Assembly (NCBI RefSeq): GCF_010731615.1
Contig: NZ_AP022618.1
Span: 744,001-808,000, forward strand
Source of the DNA: Mycolicibacterium insubricum
Lineage (GTDB): Bacteria; Actinomycetota; Actinomycetes; Mycobacteriales; Mycobacteriaceae
DNA: 64,000 nucleotides
Reading direction: 5' to 3'
This document shows positions 1-59,367 of the stretch, piece after piece; positions within the stretch are counted from its first letter, which is position 1, and each line of letters begins with the position of its first letter. The notes under the pieces were generated by a model. That model ran no database searches. It saw nothing but the letters and a program-made list of their open reading frames with translations, and was not told where the DNA came from. The position numbers and the translations under genes were made by a program.

Positions 1-1
1 C

Positions 2-550
2 CTCAACGGCGACCCCACCCAGGCCGGCGCCGGGTTCTCCGGCGTGCTGATGGCCTCGCTGGCCCGCGGTGGGTCGGCCGATGACATCGGACCCGGCGTG
101 GACTTCTTCCGGGATCTCAACCAGGCGGGCAACTTCCTGCCGGTCGACCCCACCCCGGCGACCATCGAAGCCGGCCAGACGCCGGTGGTGATCGACTGGA
201 ACTATCTCAATGGCGCCGAGACCGAGCAGGTGCCGACGTGGCGGGTGTTCGTGCCCAACGACGCCGCGGTGGCCGGTTACTACTTCCAGGCCATCAATGC
301 CGACGCCCCGCATCCGGCCGCCGCCCGGCTCTGGCAGGAGTTCCTGTTCAGCGACGAGGGGCAGAACCTGTTCGCCCACAGCGGGGTGCGGCCGGTGCGC
401 GCCGACGTCATGATGATCAACCGGACCCTGGACCGCAAGGCCTTCGAAACGATGGTCACCATCGACGGGCCGATCACCATCCCCACCGAGGACCAGGTGC
501 GCGCCGCCACCGTCTACCTCGCCGACAATTGGGCCAAGGCCATAGGGTGA
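2..550 (+). CDS. ABC transporter extracellular solute-binding protein (3' part only)
   Basis: The reading frame is open from the first bases of the window, so this is the C-terminal part (about 182 residues) of a longer periplasmic-type binding protein; the apparent internal Met at 44 is not a real start. It carries the family 1 solute-binding C-lobe pattern: a lobe rich in small residues, then AARLWQEFLFSDEGQ, which in AfuA/PotD-like proteins marks the helix near the C-terminus. It would bind the substrate outside the cell and deliver it to the two permeases that follow. The stop (548-550) overlaps an in-frame GTG (547-549) of the permease frame. The substrate is unknown: the family covers polyamines, iron and phosphonates, and the neighbours treS and mak do not settle it. 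Confidence 0.85.
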   Translation, partial: LNGDPTQAGAGFSGVLMASLARGGSADDIGPGVDFFRDLNQAGNFLPVDPTPATIEAGQTPVVIDWNYLNGAETEQVPTWRVFVPNDAAVAGYYFQAINADAPHPAAARLWQEFLFSDEGQNLFAHSGVRPVRADVMMINRTLDRKAFETMVTIDGPITIPTEDQVRAATVYLADNWAKAIG

Positions 551-720
551 TTCGGCGAGACTCGGTGGAGTGGACGGGAGCGCAGCGAGTGGCCGCGGAG
601 CCGAGGGGAGGCCGGGATCACCCGCAGAAACATAGGGTGATTCGGCGAGACTCGGTGGAGTGGACGGGAGCGCAGCGAGTGGCCGCGGAGCCGAGGGGAA
701 GCCGGGATCACCCGCAGAAG
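541..720 (+). repeat. Two tandem 90-bp MIRU-like units at an operon junction
   Basis: Bases 541-630 and 631-720 are near-identical: only positions 610/700 (g/a) and 630/720 (a/g) differ. Each unit contains TTCGGCGAG, then GAGCGCAGCGAGTG, and ends with ATCACCCGCAGAA; GGGTGAT near the start and ATCACCC near the end form an inverted pair. The first unit spans the binding-protein stop, so the last codons and TGA are duplicated. In the permease frame each unit is 30 codons without a stop (VIRRDSVEWTGAQR and so on), opening with a GTG that overlaps the upstream TGA. MIRUs of M. tuberculosis have the same size range and the same habit of sitting on overlapping stop/start codons in operons; assignment to that class is inference. 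Confidence 0.9.
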
Positions 721-729
721 TATCGGCTG

Positions 730-1572
730 ATGACGGTCCTTCGACGCGTGGTCGCGGCGGCTCCGCTGCTGCCGCTGCTGCTGTTCATCGCGGTATTCCT
801 GGTGGTGCCGTCGGGAACCGTACTGATCAACGCGTTCGTCGACGACGGCTCGTTCACCTGGATCCATATCGAGGCGCTGTTCTCCTCCACCGCGCTGCAC
901 GCGCTGGGCCGCAGCCTGGCGCTGTCGGCGGCCAGCGCGGCGCTCGGGGCGGTGTTCGGCGGACTGCTGGCCTGGCTGATCGTCGCGCTGCGGCCCACCT
1001 CCCTGGTGCGGCGCGCGGCGCTCGCGCTGTCCGGTGTGCTGGCCCAGTTCGGCGGGGTGGCGCTGGCATTCGCCTACCAGGCCGCGCTCGGGCTCCTCAC
1101 GCTGTGGGTGACGCAACTGTTCGGCGTGGATCTGGTGCCCGGTCGCTGGATGTACGGACCGGTCGGCCTGACCCTGGTCTATACCTTCTTCCAGATCCCG
1201 CTGATGGTGGTGATCTTTCTGCCGGCCCTGGAGGGGTTGCGACGACGGTGGCGTGAGGCGGCGGTCAACCTCGGAGCGACGGAATGGCAGTACTGGCGCG
1301 AGGTCGCCGTCCCGGTGCTGTGGCCGGTGTTCCTCGGCTCGACGCTGCTGCTGTTCGCCAACGCCTTCGCCGCCTATGCGACGGCGGCCGCCCTGATCAG
1401 CCAGGGCAACCTGATCCTGCCGCTGCTGATCCGCTCGGCGCTGACCAGCGAGGTGGTCCTCGGCCAGACCGGGATGGCCTATGCGCTGGCACTGGAGATG
1501 ATCGTCGTCGTCGGCGCGGTGATGTTCGGCTACACCCGTCTGGTCCGGCGTACCGCGCGGTGGCTGTCATGA
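730..1572 (+). CDS. ABC transporter permease, PotB-like
   Basis: About 280 residues with six likely membrane segments, starting with a hydrophobic stretch after MTVLRRVV. The EAA loop of binding-protein-dependent permeases is visible as EAAVNLGATEWQYWREVAVP near residue 175. It pairs with the next gene to form the membrane channel. ATG 730 gives a normal N-terminus for the family. The frame stays open upstream to GTG 547, which would add two 30-residue repeat-encoded blocks ahead of Met; I prefer 730 because those blocks are highly charged and unlike a permease N-terminus, but translation re-initiating at GTG 547 cannot be excluded. It overlaps the next permease by ATGA. Confidence 0.85.
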   Translation: MTVLRRVVAAAPLLPLLLFIAVFLVVPSGTVLINAFVDDGSFTWIHIEALFSSTALHALGRSLALSAASAALGAVFGGLLAWLIVALRPTSLVRRAALALSGVLAQFGGVALAFAYQAALGLLTLWVTQLFGVDLVPGRWMYGPVGLTLVYTFFQIPLMVVIFLPALEGLRRRWREAAVNLGATEWQYWREVAVPVLWPVFLGSTLLLFANAFAAYATAAALISQGNLILPLLIRSALTSEVVLGQTGMAYALALEMIVVVGAVMFGYTRLVRRTARWLS

Positions 1573-2348
1573 TCAGGGAGCGGTGGATCCGCGGCAGTCT
1601 GGCGCTGGGGTTCGCGGTCTTCTTTCTGTTCCCGCTGTTCGCCATGGCCGACTTCTCCACCCGCGACCTGCGCACGGGCGGACGGACCCTGGCGTCCTGG
1701 CGGAACTTGGTATCCGACCCGGCGATGCTCGACGCCATCGGCGCCTCGCTAGGGCTGGCGGCGCTGACCTCCCTGGTGCTGCTGGTGGTGCTGTTGCCGA
1801 CACTGATCTGGGTGCGGCTGCGCGCCCGGTGGGCCCAGGGGCCGCTGGAATTCCTTTGCCTGCTGCCGCTGGTGGTGCCGGCGCTGGTGATCGTGGTCGG
1901 ACTGCGCAACGTCTACCTGTGGATCGCCTACCTGCTCGGTGACTCTCCGCTAACCCTGACGTTCGTGTACGTGGTGCTGGTGCTGCCGTTCGGCTACCGG
2001 GCGTTGGACACGGCGCTGGCCGGGGTCGATCTGCGGACCCTGGTGGAGGCGGCCCGTTCGCTCGGCGCCGGCTGGACGACTACCGTCGTACGCGTGGTGA
2101 TCCCCAACATCTGGTCGGGAATCCTTGCCGCCGCTTTCATTTCGACCGCCGTCGTGCTGGGTGAATACACCATCGCGTCGCTGCTCACCTTCCACACGCT
2201 GCCGGTCGAGATCGTGGCGGTCGGTGGGACCGACGGCCGGACCTCGATCGCGGCGTCGCTGGCGGTACTACTGTTCGGTTTCGCGCTGCTGCTGGGCCTG
2301 ACGCTGTTGACCGGCGGGCGGCGCCGACGGAACTCGGCGGGGGTGTGA
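1569..2348 (+). CDS. ABC transporter permease, PotC-like
   Basis: About 259 residues and a second inner-membrane permease with an N-terminal membrane segment (LALGFAVFFLFPLFAM), several further hydrophobic helices, and an EAA loop (VEAARSLGAGWTTTVVRVVIP) at about residues 160-180 that docks onto the ATPase. ATG 1569 overlaps the stop of the preceding permease (ATGA), and its own stop overlaps the ATPase start, so the subunits are translationally coupled. The two different permeases fit the PotB/PotC or AfuB-type importers rather than the SugA/SugB trehalose importer, but family-level similarity alone does not identify the substrate. Confidence 0.88.
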   Translation: MIRERWIRGSLALGFAVFFLFPLFAMADFSTRDLRTGGRTLASWRNLVSDPAMLDAIGASLGLAALTSLVLLVVLLPTLIWVRLRARWAQGPLEFLCLLPLVVPALVIVVGLRNVYLWIAYLLGDSPLTLTFVYVVLVLPFGYRALDTALAGVDLRTLVEAARSLGAGWTTTVVRVVIPNIWSGILAAAFISTAVVLGEYTIASLLTFHTLPVEIVAVGGTDGRTSIAASLAVLLFGFALLLGLTLLTGGRRRRNSAGV

Positions 2349-3390
2349 TGACTGCGCGCCAATCGGTTTCGGTGGACGTGGTCGACCTCGGCCGGCAGTA
2401 TGGGACAGTCCGCGCGCTCGACGGGTTGACGCTGCGAATCGAACCGGGTGAACTGGTCGCGCTGCTGGGCCCGTCGGGCTGCGGTAAGACCACCGCGCTG
2501 CGCATCGTGGCCGGCCTCGACGAACCGAGCACCGGCTCGGTGTATCTGGACGGCGTCGACGTCACCCGGGTGCCGGCCAACAAGCGGGACATGGGCATGG
2601 TGTTCCAGGCCTACAGTCTCTTTCCGCATCTGAGCGCGCTCGACAACGTCGCCTTCGGACTGAAGGTCCGCGGCCGCGGTGCCACGCAGCGACGCCGGCG
2701 TGCGGGCGAGATGCTGGACTTGGTCGGGCTTTCCGGGCACGCCGACAAGTTCGCCGATCAACTCTCCGGTGGCGAACAGCAGCGAGTGGCGCTGGCCCGG
2801 GCGCTGGCGATCGAACCCCGGGTGTTGCTGCTCGACGAACCGCTGTCGGCGCTGGACGCCAAGGTGCGTGCTCAACTGCGCGAACAGATGCGCCACTTGC
2901 AGTTGGAACTGGGCATCACCACCCTGTTCGTCACCCACGATCAGGAGGAGGCGCTGGCGCTGGCGGACCGGGTCGCGGTGATGAATGACGGTAGGCTTGA
3001 ACAGATCGACACCCCAGCCGAGTTGTACGCGCATCCGGCCACCCCGTTCGTGGCCGACTTCGTCGGGTTGTCCAACTACATTCCCGCCCGGGTGATCGAC
3101 GGTAAGGCCTGGGTGCTCGGCGTCGCGCTGCCGTTGCGCGCGGGGTCGATCGAAGCCGGGCCGGGTCTGGCGATGGTGCGTCCGGAGGCTTTGGCGCTGC
3201 GCCCAGTCCAGGACGGCCCCGGCGTCGTGGAATCCAACGCCTTCCTCGGGCCGATCTCCCGGGTGCACGTCGTGCTGCCCGACGCAACCCTGCTGATCGC
3301 CGAACTGGGCAGCGCCCGGGCTCGCGACTTTCCGCCGGGAACCCGGGTGAAGGTCGGTGTCCGGCCGGCGCCGGTACTGGTGGTGGCGCC

Positions 3391-11000: not shown

Positions 11001-11328
11001 GATCGCGGTGCTGTCCGATCTGGTTGCCGTCTACGATGCCGGACGCATCGAACCGCTTCCGCTGCCGATCAAGACGTCGTATGCCTGGGCGCAGGCACGC
11101 CGCACCGCCGACGACGCCGAACAGCGTGCGAGGTGGGCCTGGTACACCGACAAATTCCCCGGCGAATGCGAAGACCCCGCCGTCCGCCGCGCCTGGGGCG
11201 ACAACGGCTGGTCGGTGCTGCAGGCCGAACCCCGCCCCGGCGAACAGACACCCGGCGAGACCACCCGACTCGGTGGCTACGCCGCCCGGGTATGGGGCCC
11301 GCTGCTGGCCGCGGAGGAGATCGACTGA
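8002..11328 (+). CDS. recC: Exodeoxyribonuclease V subunit gamma (RecC)
   Basis: The 1108-residue protein begins MAFHLHRAERTDLLAQGL, followed by VLVPARGVERWLSQRLSHLLG, the conserved opening of RecC (M. tuberculosis RecC is about 1100 residues). RecC is the Chi-scanning and scaffold subunit of RecBCD, acting on double-strand ends. Like other RecC proteins it keeps an inactive helicase fold: no Walker A, but the motif-like regions DIEIHAHPAHRLRLQLADRA and TVCTMTPMRSVPHRVICLVGL are present. ATG 8002 is chosen over TTG 7993. Its stop overlaps the recB start (TGATG), so subunits are coupled. In mycobacteria RecBCD is reported to act mainly in single-strand annealing while AdnAB handles resection. 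Confidence 0.95.
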   Translation: MAFHLHRAERTDLLAQGLGELLATPPDDPFGMDLVLVPARGVERWLSQRLSHLLGATRGNDGVCAAVQFRSPGSLIAELTGADDHDPWSPDALTWPLLRVIDDALAADAGQPWCAALAAHLGATAEGEEAELRRGRRYAVARRIAGLFASYGYQRPALLADWAAGRDTDGAGDPLPKDLSWQPILWRRLVDQVRASPPDERHRDTVTRLRAGALDLPQRLSLFGHTRLSATDIELLDALAVHHELHLWLPHPSDVLWQHLADDKETVRRRTDTSHRSVGHPLLATLGRDLRELQRALPAGIDDDHRELADRPDTLLSWLQSDLAADAVRPQGRTHRSEDRSVQVHSCHGPARQIEALREVLLGLLADDDTLEPRDILVMCPDIERFAPLFVADFGLGDLTGRANGTDIHAHPAHRLRLQLADRALSQTNPLLGVAETLLAMAGGRATATELLDLAQQPPVRARFGFTDDDLETLVEWVRTSGIRWGIDAEHRRPYGLDAILHNTWRFGLDRILSGVAMSADAPGWIGTTLPLDDVGSNRVDLAGRFAEYCDRLAGTLGALSGTAPLHDWLTTLRHGVDALTRAVGDDAWQHGQLDRELAAVATAAAGHENTELRLGDVRALLRDHLVGRPTRANFRTGAITVCTMTPMRSVPHRVICLVGLDDGVFPRAATDDGDDVLARDPLTGERDRRSEDRQLLLDAIGAATDTLVITYTGADEVTGQEHQPAVPLAELLDALDRTTGKPVREAIRVEHPLLPFDPRNVTPGTLVPGKPFSFDPAALAGARAAAIRPRPTPPPFLSGPLPTPPPGDIELDALLSFYRDPIRGFFRELDFNLGWEADEIADAIPVEIDALTEWTVGQRMLSDLLNDMDPKSVLQAEWRRGTLPPGRLGWRRAGEILTLATALADAARPHRSAAPRSVDVDVELAGGRRLTGTVTPLYGSGLLSVSYSRLSGKQLLQEWIRLLAVSAQQPGTRFTARCLGRARSRNPVSETLLASPADPIAVLSDLVAVYDAGRIEPLPLPIKTSYAWAQARRTADDAEQRARWAWYTDKFPGECEDPAVRRAWGDNGWSVLQAEPRPGEQTPGETTRLGGYAARVWGPLLAAEEID

Positions 11329-14300
11329 TGCAGCCCTTCAACCTCCTCGACCCGCTGCCCGCACCCGGCACCACCCTGCTGCTGGAGGCCAGCGCCGGCA
11401 CGGGCAAAACCTATGCGCTGGCCGCCATGGTCACCCGCTACATCGCCGAGGGCGCGGTCACCCTCGACCAGATGCTGCTGATCACCTTCACCCGCGCCGC
11501 AACCCGGGAACTGCGGGAACGGGTCCGCGGCCAACTGCTCGCCGCCGCCGAGGCATTCGAGGACCCGGAAACCGCCACCGGGGACCTTCTACCTGCCCTG
11601 CTCGACGTCGACGCACAAGAATTCGCCGCGCGCCGCAAACGCCTGCGCGACGCCCTGGCCGACTTCGACGACGCCAGTGTCACCACCACCCACGGCTTCT
11701 GTCAGATCGTGTTGAAATCGTTAGGTATCGCCGGTGATTCGGAATCCGGCGTCACCCTGGTGGACAACCTCGACGACCTCGCCGACGAGATCACCGACGA
11801 CCTCTATCTGGCCGGCTTCGCCCAGAGCGCCGACCAGCCGACGCTGACCCGTGCCGAGGCGGGAAAACTCGCCAGGCACGTCATCGCCAACCCTGGCGTC
11901 GAATTACAGCCCGTCGCACCGCAACCCGGAACCGAGGCCGCCCTGCGCCGGGCATTCGCAGGCAGAGTGCTCGCCGAACTGGAGATCCGAAAACGCCGCA
12001 GCGGCATCCTCAGCTACGACGACCTGCTGAGCCGGCTGGCCACTGCCCTGGCCGATCCGCAGGCACCCGCCCGGGAACAGATGCGCCGGCGCTGGAAAGT
12101 GGTGATGGTCGACGAGTTCCAGGACACCGACCCGATCCAGTGGCAGATCCTGCACCGCGCGTTCGACGGGCACTCGACGCTGATTCTCATCGGTGATCCC
12201 AAGCAGGCCATCTACGCGTTCCGCGGCGCCGACGTGAACACTTACCTGCAGGCTGCGGCGACCGCGGGTATCCAGCGCACCCTGGACACCAACTGGCGCA
12301 GCGACGCGCGGCTTGTCGACGCCCTGGCGATACTGACCGGCGGTGCGGCACTGGGTGATCCGGCGATCGTCGTGCATCCGGTGAAGGCCAGCCACGACGG
12401 AGGACGGCTGGTGTACCCGTCGGGCGAGTCGGCACCGCCGATTCGACTACGTACCGCCGACCGCGCCCGGTTCCGGGTCAGAGACCGCAAGACGATCCGC
12501 ATCGACTGGCTGCGTGAACACATCACCGCGGACCTGGTCGCCGATATCGGCCGCATGCTCGCCGACGGCACGAGGTTCGACGGTGAGCCGCTGACCGCCG
12601 GTGACATCGCCGTTCTCACCGAGAGCAACTTCGACGCCCGTCGTTGCCATGAAGCCCTACTGGCGGCGGGCATTCCGGCGGTCTACACCGGCGAGATCGA
12701 CGTCTTCGATTCCGAGGCCGCCGACGACTGGCTGATCCTGCTGGAGGCATTCGACGCCCCGCACCGCTCCGGACTGGTCCGGGCGGCCGCCGCCACCATG
12801 TTCTTCGGGCACACCGCCAACACCCTCGCCGAGGGCGGGCCGGCACTGACCGATCGGATCGCCGACACCCTGCGGGAGTGGGCCGGGCACGCCCGGGACC
12901 GGGGGATCGCCGCGGTACTGGAAGCCGCGCTGCTCGACGGGATGGGGCAGCGGGTCCTCGGCTGCGTCGGCGGCGAACGCCGGATGACCGACCTGACCCA
13001 GCTGGCTCAGCTGCTCGGCGACGCCGCCCACCGCAACCGGCTGAGCCCGTCGGGCCTGCACGGCTGGCTGACCGAACAGCGCCGGGACCGCGGCGGAGCA
13101 TCCGAACGACGCCGGCGGCTGGACAGCGACGCCCAGGCCGTGTCGGTCCTCACGGTGTGGGCCAGCAAGGGGCTGCAGTTCCCGGTGGTCTACCTGCCTT
13201 TCGCGTTCAACCGGCACCTGCACACCGACGACTATCCGCGCTATCACGACGATGCCGGACGGCGCTGCCTGTACATCGGGGGGGATGGGGGCCGGGAGCG
13301 TCGCGACGCCGACGGCATCGGGCGACGGGAATCGGCCGGCGAATCGCTGCGCGTCAACTACGTCGCGCTCACCCGGGCGCAGTCCCAGGTGGTCGCCTGG
13401 TGGGCGCCGGCCCGCGACGAACCCACCGGAGCGCTGTCTCGCCTGTTGCGCGGGCGGACACCGGGCGGCCCGGAAGTACCCGACGAATGCGACCCGGTGG
13501 ACACCGACGACGCGGCCCGGACCATCCTCGATGACTGGCAGCGCCGCGGCGCGATCACCGTCGAAGACGCGGAGATTGCCGCGATACCAACCCCGGTTGA
13601 GCAACCCCCCGCGACCGGGCAGAGCGTGCGCCGGTTCACCCGCGGCCTCGATTCGGGCTGGCGACGCACCTCCTACAGCGGCCTGCTGCGCGCCGCCGAG
13701 GGCATGGTCGTCGCCACCGGAGTGGGCAGCGAACCCGTCGATGTCGGCAAGGACGACGAGCCGGGACCGTCCGTGATCAGCCCGGGCGGTTCGGCGAGCG
13801 TAGGCGGAGGTGGCGCGAGCGTAGCGAGTGCCGGCGGACCCGGAGTGAAACCGGGACCGTCCGTGATCAGCCCGGGGGCCCCGGAGGAGATCGCGGTGCC
13901 CGGCGGGACAGCGGACGCCCCGGTCTCGCCGATGGCCGACCTGGCCGCCGGCGCGGCCTTCGGCTCCCTGGTGCACGCGGTCCTGGAAAGCGCCGATCCG
14001 CAGGCACCGGACCTCGCCGCCGAACTCACCGAACAGGTTCGGGCCCACCAGCTGTGGTGGCCCTGCGACATCGACGCGTCTGACCTCGCCGAAGCGCTGG
14101 TCCCCATGCACGACACCCCACTCGGGCCGCTGGCTGACGGGCTGACGCTGCGCCAGATCGGCCGGCGTGACCGATTGCGTGAACTGGACTTCGAAATCCC
14201 CCTGGCCGGCGGGGATTCCATCACCGGTTCGAGCCCGCAGATCACCGTCGCGCAATTCGGTCAGGTGATCGCCGACGCGCTGGCGCCCGACGATCCGCTG

Positions 14301-14765
14301 GCCGGGTACGCCGCGCGGCTGCAGACACCGGAGCTGGGAGGGCAACCGCTGCGCGGCTACCTCTCTGGTTCCATCGACGCGGTGTTGAGAGTTCCCGGCC
14401 CCCGCTACCTGATCGTGGACTACAAGACCAACAGGCTCGGCGACCCGTCGCGGCCACTGACCGCCGCCGACTACGGGCCCCGACAACTCGTCGACGCCAT
14501 GGAGCACTCCCACTACCCGCTGCAAGCGCTGCTGTATTCGGTGGTGCTGCACCGTTTCCTACGTTGGCGCCAACCCGGATACCGTCCCGAGCAGCACCTG
14601 GGCGGAGTGCTGTACCTGTTCCTGCGCGGTATGTGCGGACCCGACACCCCCGCGGTCGACGGCGTACCCGCGGGGGTGTTCAGCTGGCGCCCACCGGCGC
14701 GGCTCATCGAGGACCTCTCGGATCTGCTGGCCGCGAGCGAGGCCGACGGGCGGGTGAGCAGATGA
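11328..14765 (+). CDS. recB: Exodeoxyribonuclease V subunit beta (RecB), with an in-frame repeat insertion
   Basis: The 1145-residue UvrD-type helicase/nuclease is 3'-5' translocase and nuclease of RecBCD. Walker A is EASAGTGKTYAL at residues 20-31; MVDEFQDTDPIQW (about 260) is motif II, followed by LIGDPKQAIYAFRGAD. VWASKGLQFPVVYLPF is a late helicase motif. The RecB-family nuclease site is YLIVDYKTNRLG at about 1026-1037. It is longer than M. tuberculosis RecB (about 1094), and part of the excess is a low-complexity block at residues 812-850 in which PGPSVISPG occurs twice, 30 residues apart, encoded by a relative of the 90-bp repeat at 541-720. The block lies between the helicase core and the nuclease domain, in a linker. 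Confidence 0.95.
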   Translation: MQPFNLLDPLPAPGTTLLLEASAGTGKTYALAAMVTRYIAEGAVTLDQMLLITFTRAATRELRERVRGQLLAAAEAFEDPETATGDLLPALLDVDAQEFAARRKRLRDALADFDDASVTTTHGFCQIVLKSLGIAGDSESGVTLVDNLDDLADEITDDLYLAGFAQSADQPTLTRAEAGKLARHVIANPGVELQPVAPQPGTEAALRRAFAGRVLAELEIRKRRSGILSYDDLLSRLATALADPQAPAREQMRRRWKVVMVDEFQDTDPIQWQILHRAFDGHSTLILIGDPKQAIYAFRGADVNTYLQAAATAGIQRTLDTNWRSDARLVDALAILTGGAALGDPAIVVHPVKASHDGGRLVYPSGESAPPIRLRTADRARFRVRDRKTIRIDWLREHITADLVADIGRMLADGTRFDGEPLTAGDIAVLTESNFDARRCHEALLAAGIPAVYTGEIDVFDSEAADDWLILLEAFDAPHRSGLVRAAAATMFFGHTANTLAEGGPALTDRIADTLREWAGHARDRGIAAVLEAALLDGMGQRVLGCVGGERRMTDLTQLAQLLGDAAHRNRLSPSGLHGWLTEQRRDRGGASERRRRLDSDAQAVSVLTVWASKGLQFPVVYLPFAFNRHLHTDDYPRYHDDAGRRCLYIGGDGGRERRDADGIGRRESAGESLRVNYVALTRAQSQVVAWWAPARDEPTGALSRLLRGRTPGGPEVPDECDPVDTDDAARTILDDWQRRGAITVEDAEIAAIPTPVEQPPATGQSVRRFTRGLDSGWRRTSYSGLLRAAEGMVVATGVGSEPVDVGKDDEPGPSVISPGGSASVGGGGASVASAGGPGVKPGPSVISPGAPEEIAVPGGTADAPVSPMADLAAGAAFGSLVHAVLESADPQAPDLAAELTEQVRAHQLWWPCDIDASDLAEALVPMHDTPLGPLADGLTLRQIGRRDRLRELDFEIPLAGGDSITGSSPQITVAQFGQVIADALAPDDPLAGYAARLQTPELGGQPLRGYLSGSIDAVLRVPGPRYLIVDYKTNRLGDPSRPLTAADYGPRQLVDAMEHSHYPLQALLYSVVLHRFLRWRQPGYRPEQHLGGVLYLFLRGMCGPDTPAVDGVPAGVFSWRPPARLIEDLSDLLAASEADGRVSR
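13761..13876 (+). repeat. In-frame copy of the 90-bp repeat family inside recB
   Basis: A 26-base sequence starting CCGGGACCGTCCGTGATCAG is perfectly repeated at 13761-13786 and 13851-13876, exactly 90 bases apart. The 64 bases between them align with the unit at 541-630: both share TTCGGCGAG, then GGAG, then GAGCG-AGCGAGTG, GCGGA, CCG and CCGGGA at matching distances. The unit length (30 codons) keeps the recB frame and adds a Gly/Ser/Pro-rich linker. Confidence 0.85.
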
Positions 14766-50027: not shown

Positions 50028-50504
50028 TCAGGGAGTGGGCGGCGGCACGGCCCGCGGCCCGGCGGGCTGAGGCGGCCCGGCGGGCTGAGGCGGCGCGGCG
50101 GGTGCAGCCGGGCCGGGTTGCAACAGCGCCGGCTGCGGGGGCGCGAGCGCAGACCCGGCGGGCAGCGGTCCGGGCGGCGGTCCCCACCCCGGGGGTGCCG
50201 GGTTGGACCAGGCGCCCGCAGGTGACGGGACGTCCCAGACCCCGGGCGGCGACGCCGGTCCGAAGAAACGCAAACCGGCCGTCGCGAGTATCGCGCCGGT
50301 GAGCAGTCCGGCGATACCGGTGCCGACGGCGAGGGCGATACAGCCCGGCCGGCGGGGAGAGATCGACGTGGCCGGAGGGCCGACGACCGTGGGGGAAACC
50401 GGGTGCAGAGGAGGAGTCGGGGTCAGCGGTGCAGCGCCGGGTCCGGGGTGTTCGCCACCGGCGGCGTGTGGAGCCGCGGAAATGGATTGGGTGTCGGCCA
50501 TCAT
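50028..50504 (-). CDS. Proline-rich single-pass membrane protein
   Basis: The 158-residue protein has a cytoplasmic N-terminus with Pro/Gly/Ser, one membrane segment (IALAVGTGIAGLLTGAILA, about residues 56-74), and a C-terminal, probably extracytoplasmic tail of about 80 residues that is more than a third proline with repeated PAGPPQPAG. No domain or lipobox is visible. It is divergent from the response regulator gene, across a shared 141-base region. Since the adjacent kinase has its own proline-rich outer loop, the two proteins may interact; that is speculation from sequence. Confidence 0.78.
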   Translation of the reverse strand: MMADTQSISAAPHAAGGEHPGPGAAPLTPTPPLHPVSPTVVGPPATSISPRRPGCIALAVGTGIAGLLTGAILATAGLRFFGPASPPGVWDVPSPAGAWSNPAPPGWGPPPGPLPAGSALAPPQPALLQPGPAAPAAPPQPAGPPQPAGPRAVPPPTP

Positions 50505-59327: not shown

Positions 59328-59367
59328 ACTCAGTTGAGGGGCACTCAGTTGAGGGGCACTCAGTTGA
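59328..59367. repeat. Tandem 15-bp repeat over the end of the glycosidase gene
   Basis: ACTCAGTTGAGGGGC occurs at 59328-59342 and 59343-59357, and ACTCAGTTGA again at 59358-59367. On the minus strand this repeats the gene's last Asn codon and stop (CAACTGA) every 15 bases, so the true stop is the first of three. Confidence 0.85.

What the first reader, a model, noticed from the sequence alone, without database searches (positions are those of the whole stretch)
541..732. A 90-bp MIRU-like repeat inserted exactly at a coupled stop/start, preserving the overlap
Two tandem 90-bp units start inside the final codons of the binding-protein gene and end at the permease ATG. Each is 30 stop-free codons in the permease frame and opens with a GTG (547-549) overlapping the upstream TGA (548-550). 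All other junctions in this six-gene run are 4-base or similar overlaps (1569, 2348, 3391, 5145), so the repeat seems to have entered an overlap and kept it. It may modulate coupling, or add 30 or 60 residues to the permease N-terminus. The unit does not look like a transposon (no ORF for an enzyme).
Basis: partly seen in the sequence, partly recalled or inferred. Interest (0 to 1): 0.75.

Follow-up and report, generated by a model that had tools for sequence, protein, structure and literature searches.

The report
Mycobacterial hairpin repeat at gene stops
Two copies of a short hairpin-forming repeat sit at the ancestral end of a transporter gene in a mycobacterium, and related repeats in this and related genomes also sit inside protein genes, where the intact ones are mostly read in the one frame that adds a flexible linker.

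Summary
The repeat is real: two 90-bp units, 98% identical, at 541-720. Each is a 79-nt palindrome plus an 11-nt spacer. The genome holds 72 full-length copies in 53 arrays (91 matches in 70 arrays with short or degenerate ones). The hairpin covaries strongly. Members occur in 43 of 396 genomes of the genus searched, own included.

Here the element is an insertion: in 44 of 44 relatives examined the binding-protein gene ends at the corresponding codon, with no element at the junction. The array ends carry near-copies of that junction (8 of 10 bases).

Preference for stop/start overlaps is not supported (11 of 70 arrays). Gene ends are preferred (20 of 43 full-length non-coding arrays). The 61-codon permease extension has no coding signature.

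Unexpected: ten full-length arrays lie inside genes (HrpA, RecB, MurD, phosphomutase, M18 aminopeptidase, others). All 9 sense ones share one frame, encoding a Gly/Ser/Ala-rich linker, as do 8 of 8 sense copies read in relatives; three degenerate sense copies do not. Two species carry different insertions within about a dozen nt in murD.

Best reading: a selfish REP/MITE-like palindrome tolerated at gene ends and, like Rickettsia palindromic elements, inside proteins. Any effect here, as an intercistronic hairpin, is inferred.

The parts
541..630 (+). repeat unit 1 (79-nt palindromic element 545-623 plus spacer)
   Evidence: R1 match 545-623, 95.3 bits
631..720 (+). repeat unit 2 (79-nt palindromic element 635-713 plus spacer)
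   Evidence: R1 match 635-713, 99.3 bits
542..551 (+). left copy of the junction (ATAGGGTGAT), overlapping the element's first bases; target-duplicate-like
   Evidence: 8 of 10 identical to 722-731; junctions of 44 relatives
722..731 (+). right copy of the junction (ATCGGCTGAT), which holds the ATCGGCTGA seen in many relatives
548..550 (+). stop codon of the binding-protein gene, at the ancestral codon and now inside the element (positions 4-6)
547..549 (+). GTG overlapping that stop, in frame with the permease; possible but unsupported start
   Evidence: coding score of the 61-codon extension -4.9
730..732 (+). permease ATG in TGATGA, the same arrangement as in relative L117
2..550 (+). ABC transporter substrate-binding protein, 3' part
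   Evidence: weak NCBIfam match NF008633, E 0.00047, below its cut-off; 65-85% identical to the upstream gene of 44 relatives
730..1572 (+). ABC transporter permease
   Evidence: NCBIfam matches, all listed ones below their cut-offs; PF00528 in homologues
13784..13862 (+). third full-length copy of the element in the window, in frame inside recB (11328-14765)
   Evidence: 84.3 bits; residues 819-845 of a RecB protein; absent from M. fallax RecB

Best explanation
The feature is a two-copy array of a short palindromic mobile element without an enzyme of its own. It inserted at the ancestral stop codon of the binding-protein gene, left near-copies of the junction on both sides, and then doubled locally. 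Shown: the family, the hairpin covariation, the absence of the element from 44 relatives, and the concentration at gene ends. Inferred: movement by a host or lost enzyme in trans, and tandem growth by slippage or unequal exchange. The spread is probably selfish and tolerated where it does least harm: just after stop codons, or inside genes in the frame that encodes a Gly/Ser/Ala-rich linker. At this locus the likely effect, if any, is that of an intercistronic hairpin pair: it protects or ends the binding-protein message and lowers permease expression relative to it. That last step is inference by analogy with the E. coli malE-malF REP case, which I recall and did not read.
For: 72 full-length copies in 53 arrays. 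Covariation: 97.5% of cells paired against 24-45% when slid; 9 pairs changed on both sides; 0 of 500 shuffles reach either. In 44 of 44 relatives the stop is at the corresponding codon and none has the element at the junction. 20 of 43 full-length non-coding arrays lie next to a facing stop, 17 without allowing for the spacer, against 508 of 6599 intergenic bases in the window (P 9e-12 and 7e-9). The right flank repeats locus-specific deviant 5' bases in 14 of 23 positions (shuffle mean 3.9, maximum 9 in 2000). In-gene: 9 of 9 sense full-length arrays in one frame and 8 of 8 sense among 46 loci read in relatives. MurD of 22 of 23 same-genus relatives with a match lacks the insert.
Against: No mobilising enzyme was found: no Y1 transposase match; IS elements with matching ends were not systematically searched. 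A clean target duplication is not visible at most arrays: with host-only left flanks, own pairs barely exceed mismatched pairs (58% against 55% at score 5; 7.5% against 2.5% at score 8). The right-hand copy of the 5' end is itself only partly above control (37 of 53 arrays against 19 of 53 further right). Short and degenerate in-gene copies do not follow the frame rule (0 of 3 sense). No terminator-like T tract or promoter was found. No expression data exist, so the effect on the operon is unproven. 19 of 43 full-length non-coding arrays are near no stop even by the wider criterion.
Confidence: 0.65

Rival explanations
1. MIRU-type coupling element: ribosomes ending the binding protein restart at GTG 547 and carry on into the permease, so the insert keeps coupling and adds 61 residues.
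For: GTG 547 overlaps TGA by the -4 spacing that a review gives for MIRUs (passage). The frame is open to the permease. Three near-identical predicted permeases (P0001-P0003, the first being the window's own) are given starts upstream of ATG 730, within what corresponds to unit 2.
Against: The extension scores -4.9 for codon usage against about 28 for flanking coding DNA. Its frame is not the one used in genes. Unit spacings are not kept at multiples of 3 (90: 11, 89: 3, 88: 3, 87: 2). Only 11 of 70 arrays are in tight same-direction junctions.
Confidence: 0.15
2. Adaptive regulatory hairpin: the array is kept by selection because it sets a high ratio of binding protein to permease, as REP sequences do in malE-malF of E. 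coli (recalled).
For: Strong predicted structure directly after the binding-protein stop; concentration of the family at gene ends.
Against: The same elements sit inside genes and between convergent genes with no such need. The relatives examined manage without it (44 of 44).
Confidence: 0.25
3. Ancestral joining DNA rather than an insertion.
For: None found.
Against: 44 of 44 relatives have the stop at the corresponding codon and no element at the junction; the same sequence recurs at dozens of unrelated loci.
Confidence: 0.02
4. REP element moved by a RAYT (Y1) transposase.
For: Palindrome, gene-end placement; GTAG REP termini often supply stop codons (passage).
Against: No PF01797 match in the genome while 5 of 14 control genomes ring; 79 nt against the 20-40 bp given for REPs.
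Confidence: 0.1

Closest known systems
Rickettsia palindromic elements (RPE)
   Same: Palindromic repeats inserted in frame inside unrelated protein genes, with a conserved encoded peptide (passage in PMC10969869).
   Different: Here 49 to 79 nt against about 150 bp, in GC-rich mycobacteria, often as tandem arrays, with most arrays outside genes and many at gene ends. Sequence homology was not tested.
Mycobacterial interspersed repetitive units (MIRU)
   Same: Unit length within 46-101 bp and tandem repeats scattered over many loci (passage); here one end overlaps a stop codon by 4 nt.
   Different: MIRUs are said to insert at start codons with their own ORF coupled at -4 nt (passage). Here arrays are mainly elsewhere: between genes at their ends or inside genes. 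The element folds as a covarying palindrome; whether MIRUs do was not tested.
REP / BIME palindromes
   Same: Palindromes near gene ends whose termini can supply a stop codon and which can lie within ORFs (passages).
   Different: Longer, no Y1 transposase found, no GTAG or CGTC tag noticed by eye.
MITE
   Same: Short, without an enzyme gene, terminal inverted repeats, multicopy.
   Different: No parent IS identified; outer stem of 11 pairs; target duplication only suggestive.
ETR-type VNTR loci of the M. tuberculosis complex
   Different: No M. tuberculosis genome was recognised among those searched (0 of 396 carry its CRISPR repeat as I recall it), so homology is untested.

Membership tests
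MIRU | 46-101 bp units in tandem at many loci | tested here: met
   87-90 bp units, 53 full-length arrays, 15 of them with 2 or 3 full copies; definition from a passage
MIRU | Insertion at start codons with the element ORF coupled at -4 nt | tested here: not met
   11 of 70 arrays in tight same-direction junctions; at this locus only the left overlap fits and the ORF reads into the permease; definition from a passage
MIRU | Sequence homology to M. tuberculosis complex MIRUs | not testable with these tools
   No such genome recognised in the 396 searched (recalled pattern); two related papers asked for are not held; search empty
Rickettsia palindromic element | Palindromic repeat inside ORFs of unrelated genes, in frame | tested here: met
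   10 of 53 full-length arrays inside called genes; homology breaks at or around the element in MurD, M18 aminopeptidase, HrpA, RecB and a phosphomutase
Rickettsia palindromic element | Conserved encoded peptide | tested here: met
   9 of 9 sense full-length arrays share one frame; of 5 short or degenerate in-gene arrays none was scored sense in that frame
Rickettsia palindromic element | Sequence relationship to Rickettsia RPE families | not tested
   No comparison made
REP | 20-40 bp palindrome | tested here: not met
   79-nt core; definition
REP | RAYT (Y1) transposase in the genome (recalled association) | tested here: not met
   0 matches to PF01797; 5 of 14 control genomes ring
MITE | 70-300 bp, no coding capacity | tested here: met
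   79-nt core, 90-nt unit, definition; the short 49-nt class falls below this range
MITE | Terminal inverted repeats of 15-30 bp | tested here: inconclusive
   Outer stem of 11 pairs, then inner helices; definition
MITE | Target-site duplication | tested here: inconclusive
   8 of 10 at the window locus; terminal duplication shared in 14 of 23 deviant positions; weak with host-only flanks

The most novel reading that the evidence does not exclude
A genus-wide mycobacterial family of palindromic elements spreads as selfish DNA that is tolerated inside proteins: in one fixed frame its palindrome encodes a Gly/Ser/Ala-rich linker, so housekeeping enzymes (RecB, HrpA, MurD and others) carry it as an expressed insert, and independent insertions strike the same loop of MurD in different species. 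In addition, the outer stem is rewritten at each site to match the target, both arms together, which would make the covariation a footprint of the insertion or repair mechanism rather than of RNA function.
Probability: 0.4. Interest if true: 0.8.

Novelty: new variant of a known kind. Interest (0 to 1): 0.6.

Why it matters
In-frame palindromic elements are best known from Rickettsia; a review calls a similar route of protein change in other prokaryotes conceivable (passage in PMC10969869). A GC-rich genus with genetic tools would make it testable: which enzymes tolerate the linker, whether it is translated, and how an enzyme-less palindrome moves. It also shows that insertion at a stop/start overlap, the idea attached to MIRUs, is a minor part of a wider concentration at gene ends in this family.

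Tried and rejected
Preference for stop/start overlaps: rejected. Added permease N-terminus: disfavoured. 'Open in all six frames' as a special property: rejected, since 2652 of 5000 shuffles of the consensus are also open. The frame preference as an artefact of my gene caller: unlikely, because the element scores about equally in frames +0 and +1 (-3.5, -3.8). RAYT mobilisation: no enzyme found. Phage or plasmid carriage: no match in either collection. Rfam: no match in window 1-3000 at E up to 1. Close copies of the window unit in relatives: BLAST in 60 relatives gave one weak match, in another family; the distant members needed the covariance model. Classical target duplication at every site: not seen. 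P0122, a longer RecB, looked like a repeat-number variant, but its extra length is a duplicated stretch of RecB itself. A pattern scan for element ends (68 forward and 47 reverse hits, 5 and 2 for the control) was listed only in part and not followed into a search for a parent element. The malE-malF literature search gave nothing usable.

Full report
Observation. The window carries two 90-bp units at 541-630 and 631-720, 98% identical. The upstream ORF stops at TGA 548-550, GTG 547 overlaps it, and the frame is open to the permease stop. The downstream genes are two permeases, an ATPase, TreS and a maltokinase-like protein (of these only TreS passes its family cut-off); the ATPase's best match is of the 2-aminoethylphosphonate class. 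The genome is a single 4.58-Mb contig. By protein identity the nearest named relative seen was M. fallax (74% for the permease); the species is not identified.

Family. BLAST with the two-unit array gave 45 matches in the genome, 40 of 87 candidates being scored. From the 30 loci then held I extracted 43 copies of a gap-free 79-nt core, aligned 36 of them (7 exact tandem duplicates left out) and built a covariance model. It found 103 matches at E up to 1. I kept the 91 with E below 0.004, which form 70 arrays; 12 weaker ones were dropped. 72 copies in 53 arrays score at least 77 bits; 38 arrays are single, 11 double, 4 triple. Unit spacings are 90 (11 times), 89 (3), 88 (3) and 87 (2). The search scored only 150 candidates of its first look, so the census may be incomplete.

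Structure. The core folds into a long hairpin whose pairs covary: 97.5% of cells paired, against 24-45% when partners are slid; 9 of 23 pairs changed on both sides; no shuffle of 500 reached either value. The two-unit array with its flanks also folds better than shuffles (z -3.0), though the predicted fold there mixes the two units. The outer pairs differ by site: GGGTGAT...ATCACCC in the window, CGCCGG...CCGGCG in murD. The deviant 5' bases tend to recur in the flank just right of the spacer (14 of 23 deviant positions, shuffles averaging 3.9 with a maximum of 9 in 2000; this used the 37 of 53 arrays whose right flank matches the 5' consensus at 5 or more of 8 bases, while a control stretch further right gave 19 of 53). 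So many sites seem to have a terminal direct repeat with their own bases, and the 3' arm follows the 5' arm. A plain target duplication explains part of this; with host-only left flanks the signal is weak.

This locus is an insertion. I compared 44 relatives for which a locus was held: 15 same-genus loci, 28 and one Mycolicibacterium. Not examined in that count: 79 other loci, five loci from other families (looked at only), and the 17 matches without a locus, two of which (G034, G035) are among the 15. In the 44 the binding protein stops at the corresponding codon: the alignment reaches the window protein's last residue in 41 and ends at residue 177, 177 and 181 in three, with the same kind of tail (such as NWAKAIG-stop). 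A permease start codon was found between 5 nt before and 17 nt after the stop in 32 of 44; the script found none in 12. The model finds no element at the junction in any; its only other match is a weak one (23.5 bits) elsewhere in L126. The left array end reads ATAGGGTGAT and the right ATCGGCTGAT, 8 of 10 identical, and the right one holds ATCGGCTGA, seen at the junction of many relatives. A near-identical database permease (P0003) reads QKHRVMTV at the same point, which would fit CATAGGGTGATG, that is, a closer match between the two ends in that strain; this is read from protein, not DNA.

Placement. Gene calls are my own codon-usage calls trained on the window and are approximate. Of 70 arrays 18 are between convergent genes, 26 same-direction, 11 divergent, 15 inside genes. 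By a wider criterion that also counts stops up to 10 nt inside the element, 24 of 43 are near a stop and 19 are not. The null treats intergenic bases as equally likely and ignores selection against promoters, so it shows concentration at gene ends, not its cause. 14 arrays sit between close convergent stops and 11 in tight same-direction junctions. A second GGGTGA copy, at genome position 4463215, also supplies the stop of its upstream gene by my gene call.

Inside genes. Ten full-length arrays are in called genes. Nine are sense, and all nine put the element's first base at codon position 3, giving peptides like GGSARLGGVDASAASGRGAEGKPGPP; one is antisense in another frame. P is 8e-7 for six equal frames and 2e-6 when weighted by how often each frame is open. 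Five short or degenerate in-gene copies do not follow: of three sense ones, none is scored in that frame, although by eye one (839294) reads the same peptide in its right half. Homology breaks at or around the element in MurD, M18 aminopeptidase, a phosphomutase and HrpA; in RecB the element lies between the helicase and nuclease matches. The RNA methyltransferase match was too partial to test. A called TreZ gene carries a degenerate copy at a break. Pfam found EspG for one host gene, nothing for two (genome positions 2856776 and 3777711, the weakest gene calls of the nine) and only a sub-threshold match for the antisense one.

MurD in relatives. Of 23 same-genus relatives with a match (24 searched), 22 align as separate pieces that leave out the insert and one, G022, aligns through. 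G022 carries a different, 49-nt element within about a dozen nt, by eye, in the same peptide frame (also found by the model, G022 2066479-2066527, 38 bits); G016, G011 and G012 show empty sites. These look like two separate insertions in one loop.

Genus. In 43 of 396 genomes, own included, the model finds matches at E up to 1e-5, but that search scored only 11 candidates per genome with stricter filters. With 150 scored in eight of these genomes there were 4 to 26 matches each at E up to 0.001, many of a short 49-nt class. Three main size classes appear: about 49, 70 and 79 nt, with some of 57-58. I read the context of 46 of the 52 loci held (six tandem neighbours left out): 11 are in called genes, 8 sense all in the same frame and 3 antisense all in one frame. 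By their flanks L223, L228 and L229 look like one shared site, and so do L216 and L220, so the independent sense sites are about six.

Literature. Seen: passages of PMC10969869, PMC3733652, PMC3914561, PMC12548453 and PMC4213456. The term 'mycobacteri' does not occur in the main text of the first two. Full-text searches meant to catch a mycobacterial in-frame palindrome listed none that I recognised; I saw only the listings (20 of 99 papers, 12 of 14), and the library lacks most subscription papers. The malE-malF REP case, the ETR unit sizes and the link between REPs and RAYTs are recalled.

Verdict. The specific idea of targeting coupled junctions is not supported. The element is best seen as a REP/MITE-like palindrome with an RPE-like life inside genes; the fixed reading frame is the part worth pursuing.

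Noticed in passing
window 13784-13862: A third full-length copy, in frame inside recB, between the helicase and nuclease matches; M. fallax RecB lacks it.
   Followed up: yes
L208, L210, L212, L222, L225, L230: One old copy seems shared by six genomes: the upstream gene is called as ending 14 nt inside the element in all six.
   Followed up: partly
L231 363-582: Four tandem 57-bp units of the short class between two same-strand genes, by eye smc-like and ftsY-like; a likely VNTR locus.
   Followed up: partly
window 59328-59367: A perfect 15-bp tandem repeat, 2.7 copies.
   Followed up: no
window 50054-50102: An 18-bp tandem repeat, 2.7 copies, 96% matches.
   Followed up: no
P0122: A database RecB named as M. 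abscessus carries a long internal duplication, possibly an assembly fault.
   Followed up: partly
alignment A1, 36 element copies: Among pairs that are usually Watson-Crick, G-U variants seem to outnumber A-C variants, which hints that one strand folds; judged by eye and not tested.
   Followed up: no
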